Source of the DNA: an uncultured bacterium
Lineage (GTDB): Bacteria > Cyanobacteriota > Vampirovibrionia > Gastranaerophilales > Gastranaerophilaceae
DNA length: 35,077 bases
Reading direction: 5' to 3'
NCBI GenBank assembly: GCA_947361225.1
Contig: CANAIK010000015.1
Span: 1 to 35,077 of the forward strand
The position numbers and the translations under genes were made by a program. Shown here piece by piece: positions 21,284 to 32,752 of this stretch; position 1 is the stretch's first letter, and each line of letters begins with the position of its first letter. The notes beneath the pieces are model-generated. The model saw nothing but the letters and a program-made list of their open reading frames with translations. It was not told where the DNA came from and did not search any database.

Positions 21284-21823
21284 ATGGATTTAAAAGGTTC
21301 TAAAACCGAACAAAACCTTTTAGAGGCTCTAAAAGGCGAGTCGGTTGCAAGAAACAAATACACTTATTATGCGTCTCAAGCGAAAAAAGACGGATTTATT
21401 CAAATGGCGCAAATTTTTGAGCAAACTGCAAATAATGAAAAAGAACACGCAAAAATCTGGTTTAAATTATTGCACGGGTCAAAAATGCCCTCAACCATTG
21501 AGAATCTGGCTGATTGCATAGCTGGGGAAAACTACGAACACACTTCAATGTACCCTCAATTTGCTAAGGTTGCAAGAGAGGAAGGGTTTAATGAAATTGC
21601 AAGGCTTTTTGAATGTGTCGCTAAAATCGAATCCCATCACGAAGATCGCTACCAAAGACTTTTAGACAATATGAACAATAACGAAGTTTTTAATAAAAAA
21701 GACAAACAAACCTGGGAGTGTTCCAATTGCGGATTCGGGGTAAACTCCGAGCAGGCTCCTGAAACTTGTCCGGTTTGCGCTCATCCTAAAGCTTATTTTT
21801 ATATCCGAGAAGAAAATTTTTAA
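21284..21823 (+). CDS. Rubrerythrin
   Basis: A non-heme diiron peroxidase that reduces hydrogen peroxide in anaerobes, taking electrons from NADH:rubredoxin systems. The 179 residues have a four-helix ferritin-like domain with the Glu and ExxH ligands ([46 protein letters not shown]). A C-terminal rubredoxin-like site carries two Cys pairs, [10 protein letters not shown] and [11 protein letters not shown]. Standard short rubrerythrin size. It starts 4 bases after ileS and is followed by a strong terminator, so it is co-transcribed with ileS. It supports an anaerobic lifestyle. Confidence 0.95.
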
Positions 21824-21831
21824 AATCACTT

Positions 21832-21863
21832 AAAAACCTCTTAATTTTTTTAAGAGGTTTTTT
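21832..21863 (+). terminator. Intrinsic terminator after ileS-rubrerythrin
   Basis: AAAAACCTCTTAA and TTAAGAGGTTTTT make a long stem with a five-base T loop and a T tract at 21858-21863. It separates the housekeeping operon from the accessory cluster that begins just after. Confidence 0.85.
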
Positions 21864-21882
21864 AATGCATATAAAATTTTAC

Positions 21883-21911
21883 TTGACAAATTCTAAAAAA
21901 AGTATTAGTAT
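21883..21911 (+). promoter_or_regulatory. Promoter of the four-gene PP-loop cluster
   Basis: A perfect TTGACA (21883-21888) is 17 bases from TAGTAT (21906-21911). The -10 lies in a repeated AGTATT-AGTATT-AGT stretch, and TAGTTTACTA just after it (21911-21920) is an inverted repeat that could be an operator. This is the best consensus promoter in the window. Confidence 0.7.
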
Positions 21912-22080
21912 TAGTTTACTAGACTTAATGATTTTAAAATCAAAAATTGTTTGGATTATTTGCCACCCCATTAAATTAAAAGTTTGGATATTTACAATAA
22001 ATATTAAATAAAATTATTTCTAAGGCAAGAAACAAATTTTAAAACATTATTTCTTTAAAAATATTTATAAAGGAGAAAAA
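21912..22080 (+). other. Long AT-rich leader before the PP-loop cluster
   Basis: About 160 bases of predicted untranslated leader. It includes a 14-base palindrome, TGATTTTAAAATCA (21929-21942), and otherwise no strong hairpin or open frame. It ends in AAAGGAGAAAAA directly before the first start codon. The long leader contrasts with the very short leaders inferred elsewhere in the window. Confidence 0.4.
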
Positions 22081-23334
22081 ATGGAACAAAATTATGTTGC
22101 CAAGGTACTTTTGGCGCTTGCTAAGGATGAGAATTTTTTTAGTCAAAAAAATAAAAATTTTTCAATTGGATTATCCGAGAATGATATTAAAAAAGTAAAA
22201 AACTATTGTCTTGATAACAATTTAATTGAAAAAAACGACAAAAACTATACAATAAGTGTTAAGGGTTTAAAATTAATTAAAAACTACAAAGATAAACTAA
22301 GAATTACAAATATTGAATATTTAAAAGTTGAAAAAACCCCTCCAACCCTAACTAAAGCAATAAGAGCGCTTGCAAGACACTTAATTGAAGACGAAGTTCT
22401 CAAAAAAGACAGCCTTGAGGAGAATTTAAAAAAAGAGCTCCTTAATTTTCGTGAATTGAAAAAAGAAGTTGAGAATTATATTTATAATCGAAAAGAAATA
22501 AATTTAGAAGAATATTTCGATGAATTTTTGTCTAAAGGTTTAACCAAATCAATTGTGTCGATTCTGTTGTTGAATTTTTTAGCTAAATACAAAAACGAAT
22601 TTGCATTCTATGAAAAAAATCAATTCGAGCTCGATTTTACCCCCTTAATGTTTGATAGAATGGTTGTTAATCCTAAAAATTTTGAAATTAAAAAAGTAGT
22701 TCTTAACTCAAGTTTTTTAAATGAAAAAATTAATATTCTTAAGGAAACTAAAAAATTAATCCTTAAATTCCAATCCTTAGAAAAAATCGCCCTCAAAACC
22801 AATTTTTTAAGTCCTAAGACTCTAAAATTTAAAAATATTGTACTAAACGCAAAAGACCCAATGCAGCTATACTTGAGGGATTTAGAGAAAATTTTTAAAA
22901 ATAAAGAAGAATTTTCGGATTCAATTGTTGAACTTGAGAATTTTTATATAAATTTAATTCAAGAGCTTGAAAAATTTGTTTTGGTTGAATTTAGGACGGA
23001 TTCTTTATTCAATCTTAAAAACAGGTTCGATAGAATTAAACAATTTATAAATAATAAAGAACTTTTGATTCTTGGTAATAACTTAGTTTCAATTGAAAGA
23101 TTCTCAACCTATATTAACCAAAAAAGAGTCCCTCGTGATTGGGATGATTTGGATATTTCTAATTTTAAGCTAAAAACCAAAGAATTAGCGCAAATTTTCT
23201 TAATTATTGAATCAACAATCGATTCCTCTGGTTGCGCAATTGAAACTGTTACTCAAAATTTGGTTAATGAAATTTCTAAACTTGATAGGATTCAAAAAAA
23301 TATTCTATTAAGAAAGGTGGTTCAAATTGATTGA
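22081..23334 (+). CDS. Unrecognised 417-aa protein leading the PP-loop cluster
   Basis: No family recognised. Residues 1-75 look like a winged helix-turn-helix: helices VAKVLLALAKD and ENDIKKVKNYCLDNNLIEK, then a strand pair KNYTISVKGLKLIKN. Residues 90-190 and 260-417 are mostly charged, Lys/Glu-rich helices (SLEENLKKELLNFRELKKEV; DPMQLYLRDLEKIFKNKEEF). The central stretch around 185-260 has repeated strand-like KFKNIVLNA and EIKKVVLNSSFL pieces. There is no signal peptide, membrane helix, Walker motif or obvious nuclease motif. The ATG follows AAAGGAGAAAAA. Its end overlaps the next gene by 8 bases, so it is co-translated with three PP-loop proteins. A DNA- or RNA-recognition subunit is a reasonable guess, no more. 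Confidence 0.75.
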   Translation: MEQNYVAKVLLALAKDENFFSQKNKNFSIGLSENDIKKVKNYCLDNNLIEKNDKNYTISVKGLKLIKNYKDKLRITNIEYLKVEKTPPTLTKAIRALARHLIEDEVLKKDSLEENLKKELLNFRELKKEVENYIYNRKEINLEEYFDEFLSKGLTKSIVSILLLNFLAKYKNEFAFYEKNQFELDFTPLMFDRMVVNPKNFEIKKVVLNSSFLNEKINILKETKKLILKFQSLEKIALKTNFLSPKTLKFKNIVLNAKDPMQLYLRDLEKIFKNKEEFSDSIVELENFYINLIQELEKFVLVEFRTDSLFNLKNRFDRIKQFINNKELLILGNNLVSIERFSTYINQKRVPRDWDDLDISNFKLKTKELAQIFLIIESTIDSSGCAIETVTQNLVNEISKLDRIQKNILLRKVVQID

Positions 23335-24124
23335 ACATCATATTCTAAGTTTGTCGGGCGGTAAGGATTCAACCGCCCTTGCTTTCTATATTAAGGATAA
23401 TATGTCTGAAATTTTTGATAGAATGGAACTTGTTTTCTATGACACAGGTTGTGATTTAGAGGAAACTTATGATTATTTAAATAAAATTGAAGTATTTTTG
23501 GATAAAAAAATAACTTATGTTAAACCGCAAGATAGTTTCGACAAAATTCTTTTAAAAACAAGAATGATACCCACTGTTTTTAAGCGCTGGTGTACTTTGG
23601 AATTAAAAATTAAACCTTCGAATGAGTTTTTAAAAAAGAAAGTAGAGGATGAAAAAATTGATAGAATTAAAATTTATGTTGGAATTCGAGCAGACGAACA
23701 ATATAGAAAAGGGGTTCAATTAAAATCTGCTTTTGAAAAAAAATATATCAATCCTGTTTATCCTTTTATTGACAATGGAATTACAAAACAAGACGTCGAG
23801 GATATTTTGATAAAATCCGGCATAAATTATCCTGATTATTACAAATGGAGGAAAAGAAACGGTTGTTTTTTCTGTCCTTATCAAAGTCCTTACGACTGGG
23901 TTTTGTTGTATGAAAACCATCCAAAATTGTTCTATAAAGCTATGGAATATGAAAAAATCGGAGATGTTGGAAAAAAACGAGTGTTTAGCTTTAATCCCAA
24001 CTTGACCTTAAAGGAAATACTTAAAAATAAGGATAGAATTAAAGAACAAGAGGTTAACAAAAAAAGAAAAAAGAAAAATATTCAAAAATTATTCAATTTG
24101 TTTATTAAGGAGGTACAAATTTGA
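23327..24124 (+). CDS. PAPS-reductase-like PP-loop ATPase, paralogue 1 of 3
   Basis: A 265-residue member of the PAPS reductase/DndC-like adenine nucleotide alpha-hydrolase group. These enzymes split ATP to AMP and pyrophosphate and adenylate a substrate, often for sulfur transfer. The PP-loop is SLSGGKDSTALAF (residues 8-20). Then come FYDTGCDLEETYDY, KRWCTLELKIKP (Cys89), VGIRADEQYR, and YKWRKRNGCFFCPYQSPYDW (Cys180, Cys183). Cys89 plus the CxxC pair could hold an iron-sulfur cluster. The start is TTG after AAGGTGG, overlapping the previous gene by 8 bases. A true PAPS reductase for sulfate assimilation is unlikely: no sulfate genes are near and three copies sit in tandem. Confidence 0.88.
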   Translation: MIEHHILSLSGGKDSTALAFYIKDNMSEIFDRMELVFYDTGCDLEETYDYLNKIEVFLDKKITYVKPQDSFDKILLKTRMIPTVFKRWCTLELKIKPSNEFLKKKVEDEKIDRIKIYVGIRADEQYRKGVQLKSAFEKKYINPVYPFIDNGITKQDVEDILIKSGINYPDYYKWRKRNGCFFCPYQSPYDWVLLYENHPKLFYKAMEYEKIGDVGKKRVFSFNPNLTLKEILKNKDRIKEQEVNKKRKKKNIQKLFNLFIKEVQI

Positions 24125-24915
24125 AAGAATATCATATCTTAGCTCTTTCGGGAGGAAAAGACAGTGCAGCGCTGGCGTTTTATATTAAAGATAATATGTC
24201 TGAAATTTTCGATAGAATGGAACTTGTTTTTTGTGATACGGAACAGGAAATCCCCGAAACCTATGATTATTTAAATAAAATCGAAGTTTTTTTAGATAAA
24301 AAAATTACAAGATTAAAACCGCAAAAAAGTTTTAATCATTTAATGGAAACACTTAATTTTCTGCCTTCCTATAAAAATAGATGGTGTACACCTTTATTAA
24401 AAACAAAATCAATGAATGAATATATTAAAAAACTAAGAAATAAAGACGATTCATCAATAATTTATCTTTATATCGGAATTAGAGCGGATGAATTTTTTAG
24501 AACCAAATCCGCAGGCAAGAATTCGTTGTTAAAAGAGGTTTTTCCTTTTGTTGATAATAATATTTATAAAAACGATGTATTTAATATCCTAAATAATAAA
24601 GGAATCGGAATTCCCGATTATTACAAATGGAGAAAACGCTCAGGATGTTATTTTTGTTTTTATCAATCCTGTTTTGACTGGATACAATTGTACGAAAACC
24701 ATCCGGATTTGTATTATAAAGCAATGGAATATGAATATAATGATTGCGCTAAAATTAAAAACGGAAGAATGGGTTTTAATATGAAATTTGCCCTTAAAGA
24801 TTTGATTAAACCCGAGAATATCAGATTAATTAAGGAAAAAGAGAGAAAGAAAACTGTTAATAATAAAAATTTTGTATTATTTACTAAATATTTAAAAAAG
24901 GAGCTTAGTTTATAA
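24121..24915 (+). CDS. PAPS-reductase-like PP-loop ATPase, paralogue 2 of 3
   Basis: A 264-residue paralogue of its neighbours. PP-loop ALSGGKDSAALAF, NRWCTPLLKTK (Cys89), IGIRADEFFR, YKWRKRSGCYFCFYQSCFDW (Cys176, Cys179). It differs after the PP-loop: copies 1 and 3 read DTGCDLEE or DTGCDLDE, while this one reads CDTEQEIPE, so Cys42 is missing and a Cys appears at 38. Residues 18-62 are otherwise almost the same as copy 1, and the rest is much more diverged. The start is TTG after AAGGAGG, in a TTGA overlap with the previous stop. Different residues at equivalent positions suggest different substrates, or division of labour within one complex. Confidence 0.88.
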   Translation: MKEYHILALSGGKDSAALAFYIKDNMSEIFDRMELVFCDTEQEIPETYDYLNKIEVFLDKKITRLKPQKSFNHLMETLNFLPSYKNRWCTPLLKTKSMNEYIKKLRNKDDSSIIYLYIGIRADEFFRTKSAGKNSLLKEVFPFVDNNIYKNDVFNILNNKGIGIPDYYKWRKRSGCYFCFYQSCFDWIQLYENHPDLYYKAMEYEYNDCAKIKNGRMGFNMKFALKDLIKPENIRLIKEKERKKTVNNKNFVLFTKYLKKELSL

Positions 24916-25694
24916 TGAAAGAATGTCATATCTTAAGTTTATCAGGTGGAAAAGATTCAACGGCTTTAGCGTTTTTTATTAAAGACAATATGCCTGAAAT
25001 TCATAAAAAAATTGAATATGTGTTTTTCGATACGGGTTGTGATTTAGATGAAACTTATGATTATTTAAATAAATTGGAGGTTTTTCTTGAAAAACCGATT
25101 TTAAGAATTAAACCTGAAAAAAGTTTTGAACATTTATATGAAATGTATAAATTTTTACCATCTTTAAAGTTTCGTTGGTGCACGATTCATATGAAAACAG
25201 ATACTTTTAAAAAATATATGAATGAAAAAACAAAGAAAGGTTTTGAAAAAATTAATTTATATGTTGGAATAAGAGCTGATGAGCCCCAAAGGGTTGAAAA
25301 TTATAAAAAGCAAAATAAAGAAAACGAAAATAGTATTCTAAAAACCCATTATCCGCTTTACGAAAATGGATTAAACGAAAAAGATGTTTATAATTTGCTT
25401 GTTACAAATGGCGTTGGATATCCTGACTATTATGACTGGCGTTCTCGTTCAGGTTGCTATTTTTGCTTTTTTCAAAGAAAAATTGAATGGATTGGATTAC
25501 TTGAAAGGCATCCGGACTTATTTCAAAAAGCACTTTTATTTGAGAAAAAAGCCGGCAAGGGCTTTACCTGGTGTCAGAATATATCATTAGAAGAATTAAA
25601 AAAACCCTGTAATGTTAAAAAGATAAAAGATAGTTATAAAAAAAGATTTGAAAAAAAAGGATTCAAAAATAAAAAATTAATTGATTGTATTTAG
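24915..25694 (+). CDS. PAPS-reductase-like PP-loop ATPase, paralogue 3 of 3
   Basis: A 259-residue paralogue with PP-loop SLSGGKDSTALAFF, FDTGCDLDETYDY (Cys42 kept as in copy 1), FRWCTIHMKTD (Cys89), VGIRADEPQR and YDWRSRSGCYFCFFQRKIEW (Cys181, Cys184). The C-terminus is short and basic (KKRFEKKGFKNKKL), as in the other two, which would suit nucleic-acid contact. The ATG overlaps the previous stop by one base (TAATG) and follows AAAAGGAG. Its stop overlaps the convergent phospholipase-D-like gene's stop by 4 bases; there is no room for a terminator between them. Confidence 0.88.
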   Translation: MKECHILSLSGGKDSTALAFFIKDNMPEIHKKIEYVFFDTGCDLDETYDYLNKLEVFLEKPILRIKPEKSFEHLYEMYKFLPSLKFRWCTIHMKTDTFKKYMNEKTKKGFEKINLYVGIRADEPQRVENYKKQNKENENSILKTHYPLYENGLNEKDVYNLLVTNGVGYPDYYDWRSRSGCYFCFFQRKIEWIGLLERHPDLFQKALLFEKKAGKGFTWCQNISLEELKKPCNVKKIKDSYKKRFEKKGFKNKKLIDCI

Positions 25695-27022
25695 TTAAAA
25701 ACGGCTTTGCAATAAAATTCTTCACTGTCATAATAACCATTATGATTATTGTCAACCCCGTCAAAGCAAGAATTTATAGAATCAGGCGACTCGGCTTGCG
25801 GGTCGCCTAAAAGCCATTTTTCAGGTATAGATTGCCATAATCTTAAAAATTCAGTTTTAAAATTTTGCGCAAGTTGCTCATTTTGAATTATTAGTGTATT
25901 TTCATCATTGGTTTTTTCTGCTGAATTTGTCCAATTCATTGAAGCAACTACGATATATTTATCATCAATAATTGCGGATTTCATATGCATTTTTCCGCCC
26001 CAATTTTCGGTTTTTACGGCAATTTGATTCTTTCTTAATAATTCGTGCTTGGAGTATTCGTTATTTGCAGAATTTGCGTCAATTATAATTTTTATATCAA
26101 CCCCACGCTTTTTTGCTTTTATTAAACTATCAATTACCCCTCTATGAGTTAAATAAAAAATTGGAGTGTAAATATATGTATTAGCACTATTAATCAACGG
26201 TATTAATTCATTTGAAATTGGTTTATCTTGAGGTGAAAAGAAAACGGAAATTTTCGTATTATTTCCTATATTTATATTTCTATTTTTTATCTTGTTTTTG
26301 CTTTTTGAATTGTGGAATTTATTTTTAAAGTACATTTGATTAAATTCTTTTTCGTATAATTGCGCAATTTTTTTTGATTTCAATAATGCTGATACATTTG
26401 CGTTGTAACTCATGCAATTTTCAGTAATATTCGTAGAACCTGTCCAAACGTAAATTTTATCAACTATAAAAAATTTATTATGCATTATAGCCGAACGAAT
26501 ATCAAAATTTGCATTTGAATTATTTTGTAGTTCATTATAAACTCTTAAATCCTCATAATAATCACTTTTTATTCCGTCTATTTGGCTTAATAATATATCT
26601 GTTTCTTTATAAATATTATAATTCCTTATATCTTTATCGATAATGCCATAAATTTTAACACCCCGTTGTTTAGCCTCTTTTAGCGCAGATAAAATTTTTT
26701 CCTGACCCGAATAACCATAAATTGCAAATTTAATTTCTTTTTTGGCATTTTTTATTACGCCTAATAAACTTGAACAATTGTCATTAACGCAGTTTCTTTG
26801 CGGGCGAGAAAAAGATAGGGGATCTGTATAAAATAATTTTACATCTCCATTATTTATTGCGGATATATCATAATCAGATGATTGTATCGCTTTGTAAGTT
26901 TTATCGTCAGTATCTTGAAAGTCTTTTAATGCTTTAACTTCATTAGAATAAGCGCTGAAATTAAAAAATAGAATATAAACTATGCAAAAAATTTGTATCT
27001 TTAAAAATTTTGGCAGGTTCAT
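25691..27022 (-). CDS. Secreted phospholipase-D-like (double HKD) protein with Cys-flanked calcium-type motif
   Basis: A 443-residue exported protein with a signal peptide over about residues 1-27 (cut near SAYS-NE). Both HKD motifs of the PLD superfamily are complete: IMHNKFFIVDKIYVWTGSTN and KMHMKSAIIDDKYIVVASMN. The layout with short loops is closer to the Nuc/endonuclease-type PLDs than to large phospholipases, so a secreted nuclease or a lipid hydrolase are both possible. The C-terminus has CFDGVDNNHNGYYDSEEF, then YC: a Cys-bracketed Asp-rich loop like calcium-binding repeats of secreted proteins. It is convergent with the PP-loop cluster and 92 bases after an XRE regulator on the same strand, which may control it. 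Confidence 0.85.
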   Translation of the reverse strand: MNLPKFLKIQIFCIVYILFFNFSAYSNEVKALKDFQDTDDKTYKAIQSSDYDISAINNGDVKLFYTDPLSFSRPQRNCVNDNCSSLLGVIKNAKKEIKFAIYGYSGQEKILSALKEAKQRGVKIYGIIDKDIRNYNIYKETDILLSQIDGIKSDYYEDLRVYNELQNNSNANFDIRSAIMHNKFFIVDKIYVWTGSTNITENCMSYNANVSALLKSKKIAQLYEKEFNQMYFKNKFHNSKSKNKIKNRNINIGNNTKISVFFSPQDKPISNELIPLINSANTYIYTPIFYLTHRGVIDSLIKAKKRGVDIKIIIDANSANNEYSKHELLRKNQIAVKTENWGGKMHMKSAIIDDKYIVVASMNWTNSAEKTNDENTLIIQNEQLAQNFKTEFLRLWQSIPEKWLLGDPQAESPDSINSCFDGVDNNHNGYYDSEEFYCKAVFN

Positions 27023-27063
27023 TGCACTATTTTACTTTAAATAAAAATTTTATACAACAAAAT

Positions 27064-27092
27064 AACTGTAATGTCGTACTTATTTTACAGTT
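27064..27092. promoter_or_regulatory. Inverted repeat between the XRE gene and the PLD-like gene
   Basis: AACTGTAA (27064-27071) and TTACAGTT (27085-27092) are perfect inverted arms 13 bases apart. On the minus strand it is 22 bases after the XRE stop and is followed by ATTTTGTT, so it could be a weak terminator. It is also 42 bases upstream of the PLD-like start, where an operator would act. Confidence 0.4.
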
Positions 27093-27114
27093 TATTTAAT
27101 ATTTAGTTTTTTGC

Positions 27115-27456
27115 CTAAATAAAATCAATTATTTTATTAATTTTATTCAACTTTTCTTCGTTAACTGTATTTAGTTTTGAATTAATTTCTTTTATAATTT
27201 CTGACTTTTTTGATGTTATTTCATAATTTGAATTATTGTAAAAATATTCGATTTGAATATTAAAAGCTTTAGCAATTGCTAAGATTGTTTTAATTGAGGG
27301 CTTGTGTTTCCCGCTTTCAGCCCTTGCTATTGTTGAAGTATCCAATTCTGTTTTTTCTGCAAATTGTTCTTGCGATAAGTCTAAAACCCGCCTTAAATCC
27401 AAGATTTTATTTGCAATATGTTTTGTTGTTTGAGTATATTCTTTAGAAATATCCAT
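27115..27456 (-). CDS. XRE-family transcriptional regulator (113 aa)
   Basis: A Cro/C1-type DNA-binding protein. The helix-turn-helix is at about residues 14-66: HIANKILDLRRVLDLSQEQF, then AEKTELDTSTIARAESGKHK and PSIKTILAIAKAFNI. The C-terminal 40 residues are a charged helix (EIIKEINSKLNTVNEEKLNK) likely for dimerisation. I chose the ATG at 27456 (MDISKEYTQ). Upstream in-frame ATGs at 27492 and 27525 would put the three 12-base boxes inside the gene. The boxes lie directly upstream of the chosen start, suggesting autoregulation. It may also control the PLD-like gene that follows on the same strand, or the divergent XRE gene. Confidence 0.85.
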   Translation of the reverse strand: MDISKEYTQTTKHIANKILDLRRVLDLSQEQFAEKTELDTSTIARAESGKHKPSIKTILAIAKAFNIQIEYFYNNSNYEITSKKSEIIKEINSKLNTVNEEKLNKINKIIDFI

Positions 27457-27474
27457 ACTAACAAAATAATATTT

Positions 27475-27526
27475 ATTGCAGTATTTTTCCATTGCAGTAT
27501 TTATTGATATATTAAAATACTGCAAT
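27475..27526. promoter_or_regulatory. Three-copy operator-like box ATTGCAGTATTT
   Basis: The same 12-mer occurs without mismatch three times in 52 bases: forward at 27475-27486 and 27491-27502, and inverted (AAATACTGCAAT) at 27515-27526. The forward pair are 16 bases apart start to start. The inverted pair frames an AT-rich core that could hold the minus-strand -10. Position just upstream of an XRE gene and the Cro/CI-like three-site layout suggest that regulator's operator. Confidence 0.7.
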
Positions 27527-27532
27527 ATTAAT

Positions 27533-27567
27533 TAATCATATAGAAAATATAATTTATAAAAATTTTT
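27533..27567 (+). repeat. 35-base imperfect direct repeat, copy A
   Basis: Begins TAATCATATAGAAAATATAA and ends in a T5 run. It matches copy B at 30635-30669 with three mismatches. The two copies bracket the XRE(+), Fic and ATPase genes, and each lies about 80-110 bases upstream of a plus-strand start. They may be edges of an inserted block or a shared promoter-type element; AT-richness raises the chance of coincidence. Confidence 0.45.
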
Positions 27568-27638
27568 TGGTAGTTAAAATTTGCCTAAAGGTGTCTTTTA
27601 TTTTGGAAAAGTATCAAATAAAGCATTATTTTATTATT

Positions 27639-27968
27639 ATGAACACCAACGAACTTATTGGAAAAAAGATAAAAAACTTAAGATACGAAGCTAAATTAAC
27701 ACAGAATCAATTGGCAGATGAACTTTCAATTCATCCCAAGCATTTAAGCAATATTGAAAACGGCAAAAAATCAATTACAATTTCACTTTTGGATAAATTA
27801 TGCAATATTTTTAAAAAACCTGCTATTTTCTTTTTTGATTTTGAAGAGCACAAAATTTTCGATGATGATATAAGAATAATTGATTCCATTGTGCATAGAC
27901 TAAAAACCACGGACGACAAAACAAGAAAAGATATAGCACAAATTGTTAGAATTCTGGTTAAAAAATAA
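27639..27968 (+). CDS. XRE-family transcriptional regulator (109 aa)
   Basis: A second Cro/C1-type regulator, divergent from the first. The helix-turn-helix covers residues 4-60: LIGKKIKNLRYEAKLTQNQL, then ADELSIHPKHLSNIENGKKS and ITISLLDKLCNIFKKPAIFF. The C-terminal part is charged and helical. The start at 27639 (MNTNELIG) puts the domain at the N-terminus, as usual; the longer frame from 27567 adds 24 residues without similarity to anything. It is convergent with the ATPase remnant and Fic gene. Small XRE proteins next to Fic proteins sometimes act as antitoxin or repressor, but this one is on the opposite strand. Confidence 0.82.
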   Translation: MNTNELIGKKIKNLRYEAKLTQNQLADELSIHPKHLSNIENGKKSITISLLDKLCNIFKKPAIFFFDFEEHKIFDDDIRIIDSIVHRLKTTDDKTRKDIAQIVRILVKK

Positions 27969-27995
27969 AATTTATATTCTATTAATTACTTAAGG

Positions 27996-28147
27996 TTTTT
28001 GCAATTTAATGGGATTAAATAAATGAAATCGGAATTACATTAACATCTTTTGTTAAGGGTAAATCCTGTTGACTCAAGCATAAAACAGCGCCTTTGTCTT
28101 TGTTTTTTATGGTATCAAAATTTTTCGCAAACGACTTATCAGGTTTT
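27996..28147 (-). repeat. 152-base direct repeat, copy 1
   Basis: Aligns without gaps to 29285-29436 with 17 mismatches by hand count (about 89% identity). Copy 2 is the living 3' end of the ATPase gene; copy 1 is its orphan counterpart. Same orientation, with the Fic gene exactly between, so recombination between copies would delete Fic. Confidence 0.9.
28015..28147 (-). pseudogene. C-terminal remnant of a second DUF4143-type ATPase gene
   Basis: Read on the minus strand this gives KPDKSFAKNFDTIKNKDKGA, then VLCLSQQDLPLTKDVNVIPI and SFI, with the stop at the same place as in the intact ATPase. Only four residues differ from the last 43 or so residues of that protein. Nothing upstream of this belongs to the ATPase: the Fic gene runs into it and ends at 28139, in another frame. 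Most base changes are silent, so the copy was probably under selection as part of a whole gene before it was truncated. Confidence 0.85.
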
Positions 28148-29194
28148 TGTATACCAAGCACCTCGAGTCTTACCGTGTTTAATTAAATAATTATTTTCAA
28201 CCAAACTTGATAAGTGTTTTTTGATTGTATTTATATTAACCCCTGTTGATTTAGACAATTCGGAAATGGTTGCTCTATCTATGGTTTCAAACACCTCCAT
28301 TATTTTTGCTGAAACTTTAGGTAAGTTTAAATTAGTCTGAACGGAAACATTAGTGTGTTCAATCTTATATTCCAGCCTGATTTTTTGCTTTTGCAAAGTC
28401 TTCAAGAAAAACATCAACCAAGGTTCATAATCCGGATTTTTTTGCAATGTTATTTGTGTTTGTCTTAATGCCCTGTAATATCCTTCTTTGTTATCCTCAA
28501 TTATTGATTCTGTTGAACTATAAGGAATATAGGCATAACCTGATTTTAGCAACAGTAGGTTAGTAAGTGCTCTTGAAAGTCTGCCATTCCCATCTTGAAA
28601 TGGGTGAATTGCAAGAAAATTAACAACAAAAATTCCAATAACAATTAACGGATGATAAAATCTATCAGCCACATTCTTGTTTGTCCATTCAATAAGTTCC
28701 TGCATTTTTAAAGGTGTTTCAAAAGGTGTGGCAGTTTCAAATACGACTCCAAGTTTATTACCCTCATTGTCATAAGCAGCAACTGCATTAGAAATTTTTT
28801 TATATTTGCCCTTATGTTTTTCATCTTTGGAAGAATATTCTAATAAAATCTTATGTAACTGCTTTATATAATTTTCGGACAAGGGAATAACTTCCCAATC
28901 TTCAAATATAGTATCGGCAAGTTTTGCATATCCCGCAACTTCTTCCTCATCACGAGAAGTGAATGACTGTTTTTTGATTCTTGATAACAATTCTTCTACT
29001 TGTTTATCAGATAACTTATTTCCTTCTATGCGGTTTGAAGAACCAATGCTTTCAATAGTTGCGACCTTCTTTAGTGCTCTTAATTTCTCCGGAGCCATTT
29101 TGCCTAACAATTTCCAAGAACCTTTAAATTCATCAATCTCCGAAATTATTGAAAGCATTTGATTATTTATTTTTATATCAATATTTTCCAACAT
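28139..29194 (-). CDS. Fic/DOC-family protein with N-terminal inhibitory helix
   Basis: A 351-residue Fic enzyme, probably an AMP-transferase. The Fic motif is HPFQDGNGRLSRALTNLL (His197 to Arg205 core), complete. The N-terminal segment IGSSNRIEGN holds the inhibitory (S/T)xxxE(G/N) motif (Ser53, Glu57), as in class II Fic proteins that are self-inhibited, so no separate antitoxin is needed. The C-terminal 75 residues form a winged helix (RATISELSKSTGVNINTIKK, then HLSSLVENNYLIKHGKTRGA), typical of the COG3177 group. The stop lies inside the ATPase remnant repeat, so the last codons of Fic may have been supplied by the recombination that joined them. Target proteins unknown. Confidence 0.92.
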   Translation of the reverse strand: MLENIDIKINNQMLSIISEIDEFKGSWKLLGKMAPEKLRALKKVATIESIGSSNRIEGNKLSDKQVEELLSRIKKQSFTSRDEEEVAGYAKLADTIFEDWEVIPLSENYIKQLHKILLEYSSKDEKHKGKYKKISNAVAAYDNEGNKLGVVFETATPFETPLKMQELIEWTNKNVADRFYHPLIVIGIFVVNFLAIHPFQDGNGRLSRALTNLLLLKSGYAYIPYSSTESIIEDNKEGYYRALRQTQITLQKNPDYEPWLMFFLKTLQKQKIRLEYKIEHTNVSVQTNLNLPKVSAKIMEVFETIDRATISELSKSTGVNINTIKKHLSSLVENNYLIKHGKTRGAWYTKT

Positions 29195-29284
29195 ATTATA
29201 CCTAATTAGATTTAATATGACCTAATAATATATTATTTTTATCTAATCGTCAATATTGCAAAACCTTAAATCTTTTTGTCTAAA

Positions 29285-29436
29285 TTTTTGCAATTTAATG
29301 GGATTAAATAAATGAAATCGGAATTACATTCACATCTTTTGTCAATGGTAAATCCTGTTGGCTCAAGCACAAAACTGCACCTTCGCCCTTGTTTTTTATA
29401 GTATCAAAGTTTTTCACCATTGATTTATCAGGTTTT
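29285..29436 (-). repeat. 152-base direct repeat, copy 2 (3' end of the intact ATPase gene)
   Basis: Matches 27996-28147. The first 19 bases lie downstream of the ATPase stop, so the similarity extends past the coding region, which supports descent from one duplicated locus. Confidence 0.9.
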
Positions 29437-30509
29437 GAAGTTAATTTAATTTCAACAGGGTGCAAAAGCCCGTCACGCTCAATCAATAAATCAATTTCTT
29501 TTTTATCAATATCTCGATACCAATATAATGGCGCACGTTTTCCATTATGGAGATAGCTTTTTAAAATTTCCGCTATCGCAAATGTTTCAAAAAACGCTCC
29601 TGCCATAGCGCCTTTTTCTAATACTTCCGCTGATGACCAGCCGGTTAAATAAGCACAAAGTCCTGTATCTAGAAAATAAATTTTAGGCATTTTGGTCATT
29701 CGTTTTGTTATGTTTGTGTAGTATGGTTCAAGTAAATATACAAGTCCTGATGTTACAAGGATTGAAAGCCATTTTTTTGTTGTGGGTTCTGAAATTCCTG
29801 TTTCGTTTGCTAATTCTGAATACTTTAAAACTTGTCCGGTTCGAGCAGCTACAATTCTTATAAACTTTAAAAACGCCATTTCATCGTTGATTGAGGCTAA
29901 ATCTCTAATATCACGCTCCAAGTATGTCTGAATATAAGAACTGTAAAAATAGTCTAAATCCTCAACTTCACCGTTATTTAAAGTAGGATAAAAACCTTTG
30001 TGAATTACTTTAAAAATATCCGAAATTGTATAAGTTTTAGCTGTTTCTCTTCGGGTTTCAATATAGTTATTCGTTGGAATAAAAGGTTTAGGGTTTATAT
30101 TATTACTAATTTCATTTAAAGATAGCCCTAATAAATTTACAATCCCGACACGTCCTGCGAGGGATTCGGATACACCTTTCATTAAGTGAAATTGTTGTGA
30201 TCCGGTTAAAAAATACTGCCCTTTGTCGGATTTTTCATCTACAATAGCTTTAATATACACTAAAAGATTGGGCGCATATTGAATTTCATCTATTATTAAA
30301 GGCGCTTTATATCTTTGCAAAAATAAATCAGGTTCATTAATTGCAAGTTCTCTGATATTAGGTTTATCAAGTGAAGCATAATTACAGTCTTTAAAACATT
30401 CTTTTAAAAGAGTACTTTTACCGACTTGTCTTGCTCCTGTTACTAAAACAACTTTGAATTGCTCTGATAATTTTTTAACAGTGTTTTCAATTGTTCTTTT
30501 TATGTACAT
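29304..30509 (-). CDS. AAA_14/DUF4143-family ATPase
   Basis: A 401-residue protein of a very widespread but poorly understood family of ATPases in bacteria and archaea. Walker A is VLVTGARQVGKSTLL (residues 22-35) and Walker B PLIIDEIQYAPNL (Asp74, Glu75), then sensor FLTGSQQF and an arginine-bearing SLAGRVGIVNLLG. A winged-helix segment, SELANETGISEPTTKKWLSI, follows, and the C-terminal DUF4143 domain has PKIYFLDTGLCAYLTGW. Near the end EIDLLIERDGLLHPVEIKLT resembles a PD-(D/E)xK nuclease core (Asp340, Glu353, Lys355). It is upstream of Fic on the same strand with 109 bases between, and a dead second copy of its 3' end follows Fic. Confidence 0.92.
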   Translation of the reverse strand: MYIKRTIENTVKKLSEQFKVVLVTGARQVGKSTLLKECFKDCNYASLDKPNIRELAINEPDLFLQRYKAPLIIDEIQYAPNLLVYIKAIVDEKSDKGQYFLTGSQQFHLMKGVSESLAGRVGIVNLLGLSLNEISNNINPKPFIPTNNYIETRRETAKTYTISDIFKVIHKGFYPTLNNGEVEDLDYFYSSYIQTYLERDIRDLASINDEMAFLKFIRIVAARTGQVLKYSELANETGISEPTTKKWLSILVTSGLVYLLEPYYTNITKRMTKMPKIYFLDTGLCAYLTGWSSAEVLEKGAMAGAFFETFAIAEILKSYLHNGKRAPLYWYRDIDKKEIDLLIERDGLLHPVEIKLTSKPDKSMVKNFDTIKNKGEGAVLCLSQQDLPLTKDVNVIPISFI

Positions 30510-30634
30510 AAAAAAACTCCGAGAAATCTAAAATGTAATTTTAGAATAATCGGTATTTATAATTCTGTCAAGACGATAAGTTATTAGTTTTTAAACTATT
30601 ACAACATCAAACGGTAAATAAACATAATTTTTTA

Positions 30635-30669
30635 TAATCATATAAAGAATATAACTTATAAAAATTTTT
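30635..30669 (+). repeat. 35-base imperfect direct repeat, copy B
   Basis: Begins TAATCATATAAAGAATATAA and ends in a T5 run; partner of copy A at 27533-27567 (three mismatches). It lies in the 239-base gap 30510-30748 between the ATPase and the lytic transglycosylase, which holds no gene. Confidence 0.45.
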
Positions 30670-30708
30670 AATCATTGTAAATAAGTATTACTAAGAATTA
30701 GTTCCAAT

Positions 30709-30737
30709 TTGCCATTAATAATAGATTAATGTATTAT
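30709..30737 (+). promoter_or_regulatory. Promoter of the lytic transglycosylase gene
   Basis: TTGCCA (30709-30714) and TATTAT (30732-30737) are 17 bases apart. The -10 ends 11 bases before the ATG at 30749, leaving a leader of about five bases and no proper ribosome site. Confidence 0.6.
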
Positions 30738-30748
30738 AAAAATAGGAT

Positions 30749-32752
30749 ATGAATAGCAAAATCTTAAAAATATTTCTTTTGATACTTACTGCGCTGGTGA
30801 TTTGGGTTGCTCTTAGTGCTGCCAGATTTAAATGTGATACTGAGGCAAAAAGAATCTACACCCAAGGCATGGGATTTTTCTATGACAAAAATTATTCTGA
30901 TGCTTATTATAATTTTAAACAAATTAAAAAATTCTCAAAACTCTATCCTTTAGCGCTTTTAAAGCAATTCCAATGTGCTAATTATTTGTCTGACAAAAAA
31001 ACGGCTCATTTAAAAATTGCCGAACTTGCAAAATCTACAAATGATGAAAACTTAAAGCCTTTTTCTCTTTACAATGAGGCAAACTTGGCGCTGGAGCTTA
31101 ATTTTGACACTCAAGACGTTAGTTTAAAAAAATATAAATATATTTACAATCATTATCCTGATTCGGATTTCGGGCTTGCAAGCGCTTATAAAATTGCAAG
31201 ATTGTCGACTAATAACGGTGTAAAAAAAGAAAAATACATTGAATATTTGGACAATATTCCCAATGGAAAATTTGCACTTAGCGCTCTTAGTGCAATAGAA
31301 GAAGAAAAATTGATTCTTAATAAACAAGACAAAGAAATTGTTGCAGGGGTTTATTTAGAGAATAAAAAATACAAACAAGCTCTTGATTATTATCTTGAAA
31401 CTGATTTTAGAAAAAATTGGTATAAAATTTCCAAATGTTACAGAGGTTTAGAAAGAAAAGATTCGGAAAAAGAAACAATTCTTAAGGGGTTGAATCTTGA
31501 AAAAAGCTCGGTTGAAGAAAAAGAAATCGATTGGGCAATTGATAGATTAACAATTCTTTCTAATTCAAGCAAAATTCAATTGTTGCAAAATCTTTATAAA
31601 AAATACCCTAATTCATATATTTATCCCACAGTTCTTTATAAACTTGCCGAAAGCAGCGGCAGCGGATCTGTTCGAGGAATTAAACTTTATGAATATATTG
31701 TAGAAAAATATCCTGATTCAATTTGGGCGTCTAATTCCCTTTGGGAGCTATTTTGGTACAACTACAAATTATCAAGATTCCAACTTTGCGAAGATTTAGC
31801 TAAAAAACACTATGAACTATACCCTAAAACTCAAGATGCGCCCAGGGTTCAATACTGGTACGCAAGAGCTTTGGCGAATGAGAAAAAACCAAAAGAGGCG
31901 CTTGAAGTTTTCTATAAAGTTATAAAAAACTATCCTTTAAGCTATTATGCGTTTTTAAGCACAAAACAATCCAGGGAAATTAAAAAACACGATTCAAAAA
32001 ACTTGTTTATCAAAAATAAAATTTTCCACGGGGATTATTTGACAACCGTTGAACAAGTTTTATTTAAAGACGAACTTTTGATATTCCTATCAGAACAAGG
32101 TGATTATCAAGCAATCGACGAATTGAGAATTAAGAATGAATATATTGATTCTTGGGTTGCTAATAAAAAAAGAAACTTTCCTTTGTCAATAAAAATGGCA
32201 AAAGATAAATTTTTAACAACCATTAAAGAACAAAACGATTACAAGCCCGATTTTTCAAGTTATGAGCTAAAATTAATTTATCCTATTGTTTATGAAAACG
32301 AAATTAACAGATACTGCGAAAGACACGGGATTAGTCCTTATTTGTTCTTAAGTTTGGTTCGAGAAGAAAGCCATTTTGATAAAAATTCAAAAAGTGCGGT
32401 TGGCGCAATAGGTTTAGCTCAAGTAATGCCCTCAACTGCTGAATTTATCGAAAAAAGACCAATTTCAACAAGAATTCTTCATCAAGAAGAAGAAAATATT
32501 GAGATTGGTGTTAAATACTTTGCTTATTTACTTGAGCGTTTTGAAGAAAACGAATATTTGGCAATTCTTGCTTATAACGCAGGTCCCGGTAAAATTGACA
32601 GGTGGCTTAAGAATGATTTAATAAGTAGTGATGAAATCGATGTTTTTGTTGAGAATATTCCATATATTGAAACCAAAAACTACATTAAAAAAATACTATC
32701 AAGCTACTGGGTGTATTTAAATGTATATCGTCCGCAAAAAATAAGACATTAA
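30749..32752 (+). CDS. Slt70-like soluble lytic murein transglycosylase
   Basis: Cleaves the MurNAc-GlcNAc bond of peptidoglycan, leaving 1,6-anhydro ends. The 667 residues begin with a membrane anchor or signal (FLLILTALVIWVALSAARF), followed by about 480 residues of TPR-like helical repeats (KYPDSIWASNSLWELFWYNY; RVQYWYARALANEKKPKEAL; EVFYKVIKNYPLSYYAF). The C-terminal SLT domain has SPYLFLSLVREESHFDKNSK, with catalytic Glu540, then SAVGAIGLAQVMPSTA and YLAILAYNAGPGKIDRWL. The layout is that of Slt70. Monocistronic, with its own promoter and a strong terminator. A role in wall turnover is expected; no secretion apparatus is adjacent. Confidence 0.93.
   Translation: MNSKILKIFLLILTALVIWVALSAARFKCDTEAKRIYTQGMGFFYDKNYSDAYYNFKQIKKFSKLYPLALLKQFQCANYLSDKKTAHLKIAELAKSTNDENLKPFSLYNEANLALELNFDTQDVSLKKYKYIYNHYPDSDFGLASAYKIARLSTNNGVKKEKYIEYLDNIPNGKFALSALSAIEEEKLILNKQDKEIVAGVYLENKKYKQALDYYLETDFRKNWYKISKCYRGLERKDSEKETILKGLNLEKSSVEEKEIDWAIDRLTILSNSSKIQLLQNLYKKYPNSYIYPTVLYKLAESSGSGSVRGIKLYEYIVEKYPDSIWASNSLWELFWYNYKLSRFQLCEDLAKKHYELYPKTQDAPRVQYWYARALANEKKPKEALEVFYKVIKNYPLSYYAFLSTKQSREIKKHDSKNLFIKNKIFHGDYLTTVEQVLFKDELLIFLSEQGDYQAIDELRIKNEYIDSWVANKKRNFPLSIKMAKDKFLTTIKEQNDYKPDFSSYELKLIYPIVYENEINRYCERHGISPYLFLSLVREESHFDKNSKSAVGAIGLAQVMPSTAEFIEKRPISTRILHQEEENIEIGVKYFAYLLERFEENEYLAILAYNAGPGKIDRWLKNDLISSDEIDVFVENIPYIETKNYIKKILSSYWVYLNVYRPQKIRH

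What the first reader, a model, noticed from the sequence alone, without database searches (positions are those of the whole stretch)
27996..29436. Fic gene lies between 152-base direct repeats, one of which is the dead tail of a second ATPase gene
Copies at 27996-28147 and 29285-29436 are gap-free and about 89% the same. Copy 1 encodes only the last 43 or so residues of the ATPase, and the Fic stop codon is inside it. So a Fic gene appears to have replaced most of a duplicated ATPase, or arrived by recombination at such tails. DUF4143 ATPase tails may serve as landing or exchange sites for cargo genes.
Basis: partly seen in the sequence, partly recalled or inferred. Interest (0 to 1): 0.6.

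Follow-up and report, generated by a model that had tools for sequence, protein, structure and literature searches.

The report
Transposon-borne Fic gene beside ATPase gene
A Fic gene of transposon origin sits right behind an intact ATPase gene, apparently put there by DNA that matched the ATPase at one end only, which left a second, patchwork copy of the ATPase's tail: a small example of how bacterial defence islands may grow without breaking the genes already in them.

Summary
The repeats are real: 135 of 152 bases match, gap-free. They are not a plain duplication. Of 17 differences, 13 are at third codon positions (dN/dS about 0.07), so copy 1 spent most of its separate history inside a working ATPase gene. 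The stop-side 46 bases, 19 of them non-coding, are identical. Copy 1 therefore looks like a mosaic of a foreign tail and a recent duplicate of the resident one.

Fic is a mobile newcomer. Its orthologues (85-93%) lie in other genera of the family, in many places. In 29 of 29 near-clade loci, similarity to the window ends in Fic's last codons. Many sit in TniA/TniB-type transposons, between a third gene and variable, often defence-related cargo. The window keeps the last nine codons of that third gene.

Best reading: a linear donor piece (gene relic, Fic, foreign ATPase tail) entered by homologous exchange inside the tail and an illegitimate join at the other end, leaving the resident ATPase intact. 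Ancient tandem ATPases remain possible. ATPase tails are not a general landing site: 1 of 80 other loci shows one. Moderate interest; new member of a known kind.

The parts
29304..30509 (-). Intact AAA_14/DUF4143 ATPase (401 aa), best PADLOC model PDC-S01 (candidate defence)
29285..29436 (-). Repeat copy 2: real 3' end of the ATPase plus 19 nt after its stop
27996..28147 (-). Repeat copy 1: 43 ATPase codons, stop and 19 nt, without the rest of the gene
27996..28041 (-). Stop-side 46 nt of copy 1, identical to 29285-29330: read as a recent duplicate of resident DNA
   Evidence: interpretation is inference
28042..28147 (-). 106 nt of copy 1 with 17 differences, mostly third-position: read as tail of a foreign (or paralogous) ATPase
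   Evidence: interpretation is inference
28139..29194 (-). Fic gene (351 aa), Fic motif HPFQDGNGR, C-terminal winged-helix-like end; stop codon supplied by copy 1
29195..29256 (-). Conserved Fic promoter region (TTGACG at 29248-29253, AT-rich -10, repeated TTAGGTC/TTAGGTA motifs)
   Evidence: functional labels are inference
29243..29272 (-). Relic of the last nine codons and stop (DLRFCNIDD*) of the gene that precedes Fic in transposons
29273..29284 (.). 12-nt filler between the end of copy 2 and the relic: proposed illegitimate junction
   Evidence: inference
27524..27567 (.). 44-nt repeat (84%) of the native region upstream of the SLT gene, at the left edge of the HTH-tail-Fic-ATPase block
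30626..30669 (.). Native copy of that repeat, within the g21284-SLT intergenic region that aligns to genus relatives
21824..30587 (.). Island of accessory genes (SspC-like, three SspD-like, PLD, two HTH, Fic, ATPase) between two genes that are direct neighbours in 19 of 25 other genus genomes with an SLT hit

Best explanation
The Fic gene is transposon cargo that was stranded here. In other genera of the family it follows TniA-like and TniB-like transposition genes and a third gene, and sits in front of exchangeable, often defence-related cargo; the window keeps only the last nine codons of that third gene, then the Fic promoter and Fic (shown). Fic's end had become joined to the tail of an ATPase of another lineage (inferred). 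This linear piece then entered the resident locus by one-sided homologous recombination: exchange inside the ATPase tail joined foreign Fic plus foreign tail to the resident tail end, while the other end was joined illegitimately just behind the intact resident ATPase (inferred). The result is an intact ATPase, Fic, and a second tail that is foreign for 106 nt and a fresh duplicate of resident DNA for 46 nt. Recombination between the two tails should delete 1,289 bp including Fic and leave a complete ATPase, so the insertion should be reversible (prediction). The likely roles of Fic (self-inhibited AMP-transferring enzyme with its own operator) and of the ATPase (defence candidate) are inferred from family and neighbourhood only.
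For: Mosaic repeat: 0 of 46 differences on the stop side, 17 of 106 elsewhere (terminal run P 0.003; a run of that length anywhere 0.026); the 19 non-coding bases should hold about 9 differences at the coding dS. Coding constraint: 13 of 17 at third positions, dS 0.72, dN 0.05. All four amino-acid differences are derived in copy 1. Fic edges: in 29 of 29 near-clade loci similarity to the window ends at 28136-28149; of the 27 with an uncut left side 15 begin at 29271-29275, 11 at 29253-29257, 1 at 29289. Pairs 95-96.5% identical across Fic still part within a few bases of its end (L196/L204, L194/L198, L200/L201, L207/L208). Transposon context: Mu-type transposase C-terminus/rve, TniB/AAA_22 and phage-integrase SAM-like domains; a right-end block of about 350 bp lies behind the cargo in 17 of 61 other Fic loci, and in L192 it abuts the Fic stop directly. 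Cargo: 6 of 10 proteins scanned match PADLOC models at 1e-5, and a seventh is an Mrr endonuclease in Pfam.
Against: No genome with the proposed donor or the Fic-less resident was found; no other genus genome has the ATPase. The left junction shows no clear microhomology and has a 12-nt filler of unknown origin. An old tandem pair of ATPases with later conversion of the stop side would look much the same. The end-run statistic is modest, and searching for a run anywhere gives only 0.026. Recorded products of this kind of recombination usually carry a deletion (PMC3240628, introduction read), which the additive form proposed here does not need. The sequence is a binned metagenome contig and reads were not available.
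Confidence: 0.5

Rival explanations
1. The locus once had two tandem ATPase paralogues; a Fic fragment replaced most of the downstream one, and the stop sides were later evened out by gene conversion.
For: The differences show coding constraint, as for two working paralogues. Second, broken ATPase copies exist elsewhere: L070 has an intact ATPase followed by pieces of a second, and L060 has a 501-nt, 93% duplicate of the 3' end.
Against: Needs a duplication, a long divergence, a replacement and a conversion. None of the 22 other family genomes with the ATPase has more than one match. The second copy in L070 is distant (38-47% to the window protein).
Confidence: 0.22
2. A circular molecule carrying Fic and a foreign ATPase tail integrated by a single crossover in the tail.
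For: Gives direct repeats flanking the insert and an intact ATPase. Single crossover of circular DNA is a usual fate of incoming DNA in E. coli (PMC3240628, abstract and introduction).
Against: Both tails would be hybrids that differ along the whole repeat; the identical 46 nt is not predicted unless donor and resident were identical there. The 29273-29284/relic junction would have to have formed in the circle.
Confidence: 0.13
3. The repeats are a long target-site duplication made when a Fic element inserted, and copy 1 has decayed since.
For: Fic has recurrent edges and lies between direct repeats elsewhere too (L210-L218 group 40-91 nt, L230 142 nt).
Against: A copy neutral since duplication should show about 37 non-synonymous changes; 5 seen, P 4e-11. 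A target duplication would be much shorter (general knowledge). The evenness expected of decay is absent (0 of 46 against 17 of 106).
Confidence: 0.03
4. Assembly chimera of two strains in a metagenome.
For: The sequence is one genome of 98 contigs; contigs of this genome end at transposase genes, so repeats did break the assembly.
Against: The two tails differ at 17 bases and the shared run is only 46 nt. The flanking SLT gene and the gene left of the island have the genus order. The alternative path would leave a 1,289-bp circle.
Confidence: 0.06

Closest known systems
Homology-facilitated illegitimate recombination (PMC3240628: title, abstract, introduction and part of methods read)
   Same: Homologous exchange at one end of a linear piece, illegitimate join at the other; inserts about 1 kb (here 1.3 kb).
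   Different: Published products usually have a matching deletion and 3-10 bp microhomology; here no deletion is visible, there is a short duplication, and microhomology is unclear.
Sequential displacement of T6SS effector genes in Vibrio, with old immunity genes kept downstream (PMC5361080: passages read)
   Same: Incoming module anchored by homology, with remains of the old or foreign gene left downstream.
   Different: There the resident effector is displaced; here the resident ATPase stays intact and the leftover is only a 43-codon tail, mostly foreign.
Tn7-like transposons with defence cargo (PMC8649781: start of abstract and three passages seen)
   Same: A transposition ATPase and a DDE transposase beside varied defence cargo; Fic/Doc is listed among cargo genes (7 cases in its table).
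   Different: The related elements here have a Mu-type transposase and a SAM-like third gene, with Fic at the front edge of the cargo in 9 of 30 loci checked. No left end was located. The window itself has no transposition gene.
PADLOC PDC-S01 and SoFic models
   Same: ATPase matches PDC-S01 over 2-400 (363 bits); Fic matches SoFic over 17-348 (156 bits).
   Different: Both are candidate or tentative assignments; NCBIfam's SoFic equivalog cut-off (550 bits) is far from met (59.6 bits).

Membership tests
Homology-facilitated illegitimate recombination product | Homology at one junction only, with a breakpoint inside the homologous stretch | tested here: met
   Mosaic: 0/46 then 17/106 differences; the other side leads into transposon-gene relic without homology.
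Homology-facilitated illegitimate recombination product | Microhomology of 3-10 bp at the illegitimate junction | tested here: inconclusive
   12-nt filler, no donor sequence to compare.
Homology-facilitated illegitimate recombination product | RecA dependence, linear incoming DNA | not testable with these tools
   Needs experiment.
Target-site duplication | Repeats identical at insertion, then neutral divergence of the dead copy | tested here: not met
   dN/dS 0.07; 5 non-synonymous changes against 37 expected, P 4e-11.
TniA/TniB (Tn7/Mu-like) transposon: related elements | DDE transposase plus AAA regulator | tested here: met
   Mu-transpos_C 1e-13, rve 2.8e-5, AAA_22 1.5e-16, TniB 1.6e-6.
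TniA/TniB (Tn7/Mu-like) transposon: related elements | Two defined ends with inverted repeats and target duplication | tested here: inconclusive
   Right end ...ATAAACCCCA with differing flanks in 7 loci; left end and target duplication not found.
TniA/TniB transposon: the window itself | Transposase genes or right-end block beside Fic | tested here: not met
   No right-end block in the window; TniA-like genes of this genome lie on other contigs.
Fic AMP-transferase | Fic domain with HPFx[D/E]GN[G/K]R motif | tested here: met
   PF02661 1.3e-17; HPFQDGNGR in the translation; motif wording as in the abstract of PMC2686095 (listing).
Fic AMP-transferase | Self-inhibition motif (S/T)xxxE(G/N) before the Fic domain | tested here: met
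   SNRIEG at residues 53-58 of the translation; the motif rule is recalled.
DUF4143 ATPase | AAA_14 and DUF4143 above Pfam cut-offs | tested here: met
   102 and 160 bits against 27 and 28.

The most novel reading that the evidence does not exclude
Single defence genes such as this ATPase and this Fic spread and pile up by homology-anchored additive insertion, each leaving short, already-diverged direct repeats of the gene next door. Defence islands would then grow like nested dolls while every resident gene stays intact, and each layer can drop out again without a scar. In this window two layers are visible (152-nt repeat around Fic, 44-nt repeat around the ATPase block).
Probability: 0.25. 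Interest if true: 0.65.

Novelty: new member of a known kind. Interest (0 to 1): 0.42.

Why it matters
How single defence genes enter and leave islands is poorly understood. Here the scar itself can be read: codon-position pattern and the identical run separate foreign from resident DNA and argue against target duplication. Relatives of this ATPase have direct repeats on both sides more often than other genes in the same loci (17 of 76 against 13 of 207), so the mechanism can be tested widely. The wider find, a Fic gene at the front edge of an exchangeable defence cargo region in TniA/TniB elements of this family of gut bacteria, gives a handle for finding new defence genes.

Tried and rejected
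Target-site duplication: rejected on codon pattern. ATPase tails as general landing sites: 1 of 80 loci. A conserved ATPase-Fic pair: 0 of 60 other Fic loci lie next to this ATPase. Among the 22 other family ATPase loci none has a Fic match within the stretch held (usually 1.5 kb each side, some cut by contig ends); in the 80 genome-contig loci 6 have a Fic-like match (L021, L024, L033, L047, L053, L073), most of them distant. Integron-like arrays: the ATPase-flanking repeats were read by eye in about ten loci and are heterogeneous (promoter regions, ends of coding genes, REP-like palindromes), so not one attC-like class. Transposon left end: probed with the right end and by flank comparison, not found. 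A stop-less Fic cassette as such: dropped, since most Fic genes keep a stop right after WYTK and only some borrow one.

Rows dropped: in the Fic flank-repeat count of 12 of 57, L231, L232 and L241 are artefacts of contig-cut genes, leaving 9 of 54; six of those nine are one related group. Control ORFs in Fic loci gave 6 of 105. With the stricter cut (40 nt, 80%) the ATPase count is 12 of 76 against 10 of 207. Synonymous polarisation is unreliable because outgroups are about 70% alike; only the amino-acid changes are used. The 44-nt repeat is modest: 1 of 300 shuffles reached its score.

Not used: structure prediction and fold search (no question here turned on them).

Full report
What is there. 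The window is contig C15 of a 1.9-Mb genome in 98 contigs. By its best-matching named relatives it is a Gastranaerophilales genome (inference). An intact 401-aa AAA_14/DUF4143 ATPase (29304-30509, minus strand) is followed by a 351-aa Fic gene (28139-29194, minus) and then by 43 codons of ATPase tail. The two tails, 27996-28147 and 29285-29436, match at 135 of 152 bases without gaps.

How the tails differ. Of 17 differences 13 are at third codon positions. Over the shared codons dS is 0.72 and dN 0.05, ratio 0.07; a tail that had been free of selection since duplication should carry about 37 amino-acid-changing substitutions, and 5 are seen. So copy 1 evolved for most of its separate history as part of a working gene. 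The differences are also uneven: none in the stop-side 46 nt, which include 19 nt of non-coding DNA, and 17 in the other 106 nt. An identical end run of that length has P 0.003, a run anywhere 0.026, and the 19 non-coding bases alone should hold about 9 differences at the coding dS. Compared with outgroup ATPases, all four amino-acid differences are new in copy 1, which fits recent loss of constraint there.

Where Fic comes from. In 383 genomes of the family, 60 (the window's own included) have a Fic match at E <= 1e-60, the closest at 85-93% identity and all of those in other genera; the one other genus match is a 71% relative in G027. In 29 of 29 near-clade loci compared, DNA similarity to the window ends between 28136 and 28149, that is in Fic's last codons, and the bases after the codons for WYT(K/R) differ from locus to locus. 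Upstream it begins at 29271-29275 in 15, 29253-29257 in 11 and 29289 in 1 of the 27 with an uncut left side. Pairs of Fic genes 95-96.5% identical part within a few bases of the Fic end.

The element. In many of the nearest loci Fic follows three genes: a Mu-type transposase, a TniB-like ATPase and a protein with a phage-integrase SAM-like domain. Behind Fic lie 0.4-2.9 kb of variable cargo in the elements compared, then a right-end block of about 350 bp that ends in ATAAACCCCA. Right-end matches behind Fic were seen in 17 of 61 other Fic loci and none in the window (L196 counted through its wider stretch L260, and L192 and L208 are partial matches). In L192 the Fic stop codon abuts the right end directly, an empty cargo place. 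Of ten cargo proteins scanned, six match PADLOC models at 1e-5 (GajB, PD-T4-6, PtuA/PDC-M01A, Old/GajA, HNH and metallophosphatase effectors) and one more is an Mrr endonuclease in Pfam. Fic follows the third gene in 9 of the 30 best loci of that gene; other genes follow it in the rest. The left end and a target duplication were not found. In the 71% clade some Fic genes lie in a different setting, between two genes that I take from their order and size for type I restriction hsdS and hsdR (L142, L235, L236, L245, L249; not scanned). The window keeps nine codons and the stop of the third gene just before the Fic promoter (29243-29272).

How the repeat most likely arose. A linear piece ending in third-gene relic, Fic and a foreign ATPase tail exchanged with the resident ATPase tail about 46 nt from the end of the repeat; its other end was joined just behind the resident ATPase. 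That gives exactly an intact resident ATPase, the relic, Fic and a tail that is foreign for 106 nt and a fresh duplicate of resident DNA for 46 nt. A circular donor would not predict the identical 46 nt. Tandem ATPases with later conversion remain possible. The donor, the direction of exchange and the illegitimate join are inferred; no relative shows an intermediate, and no other genus genome has the ATPase at E <= 1e-60.

The island. In 19 of the 25 other genus genomes with an SLT match, the gene equivalent to 21284-21823 lies directly beside the SLT gene with no island; in the six others that gene was not found beside it within the stretch held. The native spacer of those relatives aligns to 30588-30755 here. 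A 44-nt, 84% repeat of that spacer stands at 27524-27567, at the far edge of the HTH-tail-Fic-ATPase block; 1 of 300 shuffles reached its score. This may be the mark of an earlier insertion of the same kind.

Is it general? Among 80 relatives of the ATPase in named genomes, one (L060) has a duplicated ATPase coding tail (501 nt, 93%). But 17 of 76 ATPase loci have direct repeats on both sides, against 13 of 207 other genes in the same loci (P 0.0003; stricter cut 12 of 76 against 10 of 207, P 0.005). In L015 the repeat (82 nt, 98.8%) is the end of a neighbouring coding gene. So the ATPase itself may often insert with duplication of its neighbour's DNA; this was not examined further.

Literature. 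One paper in the library holds the word DUF4143 and none holds both DUF4143 and Fic. One-sided homologous insertion is known (PMC3240628) and has been proposed for T6SS gene arrays (PMC5361080, passages). Defence cargo of Tn7-like elements is known (PMC8649781, passages). I found no report of this Fic arrangement in the listings of searches, which cover open-licence papers only.

Noticed in passing
window 22081-25694: SspC-like gene followed by three tandem SspD-like genes (PADLOC 1e-76 to 1e-89) at 794-nt spacing: a phosphorothioation-type defence set with a triplicated gene.
   Followed up: no
window 25691-27022: Protein with PLD-type domains (PLDc_2 9.8e-50), matching DrmC models in two stretches, beside the SspD genes.
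   Followed up: no
window 27115-27968: Two divergent HTH regulators next to the tail copy; the 44-nt repeat lies in their shared upstream region.
   Followed up: partly
L060 2026-2526 and 5001-6212: In Chlorobium sp. L227-S-6D a 501-nt, 93% copy of the ATPase 3' end lies 2.5 kb before the full ATPase, with what looks by eye like a BrnT/BrnA pair between them.
   Followed up: partly
L015 285-366 and 1707-1788: A Gastranaerophilales ATPase gene lies between 82-nt, 98.8% identical copies of the end of a neighbouring coding gene.
   Followed up: partly
L142, L235, L236, L245, L249: Fic of the 71% clade lies between what look like hsdS and hsdR of a type I restriction system.
   Followed up: no
L192: Empty cargo place: the Fic stop codon abuts the right-end block of the transposon, with another right-end copy upstream.
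   Followed up: partly
G000 contigs C3, C29, C44, C56: TniA-like transposase genes lie at contig ends, so this genome holds several related transposons that broke the assembly.
   Followed up: partly
L210, L211, L214, L216, L217, L218: Fic lies between diverged 40-91-nt non-coding direct repeats in one related group of loci.
   Followed up: partly
L021 5001-6790: In a proteobacterial genome an ATPase (55%) is followed on the same strand by a Fic (67%), the window order, cut by the contig end.
   Followed up: no
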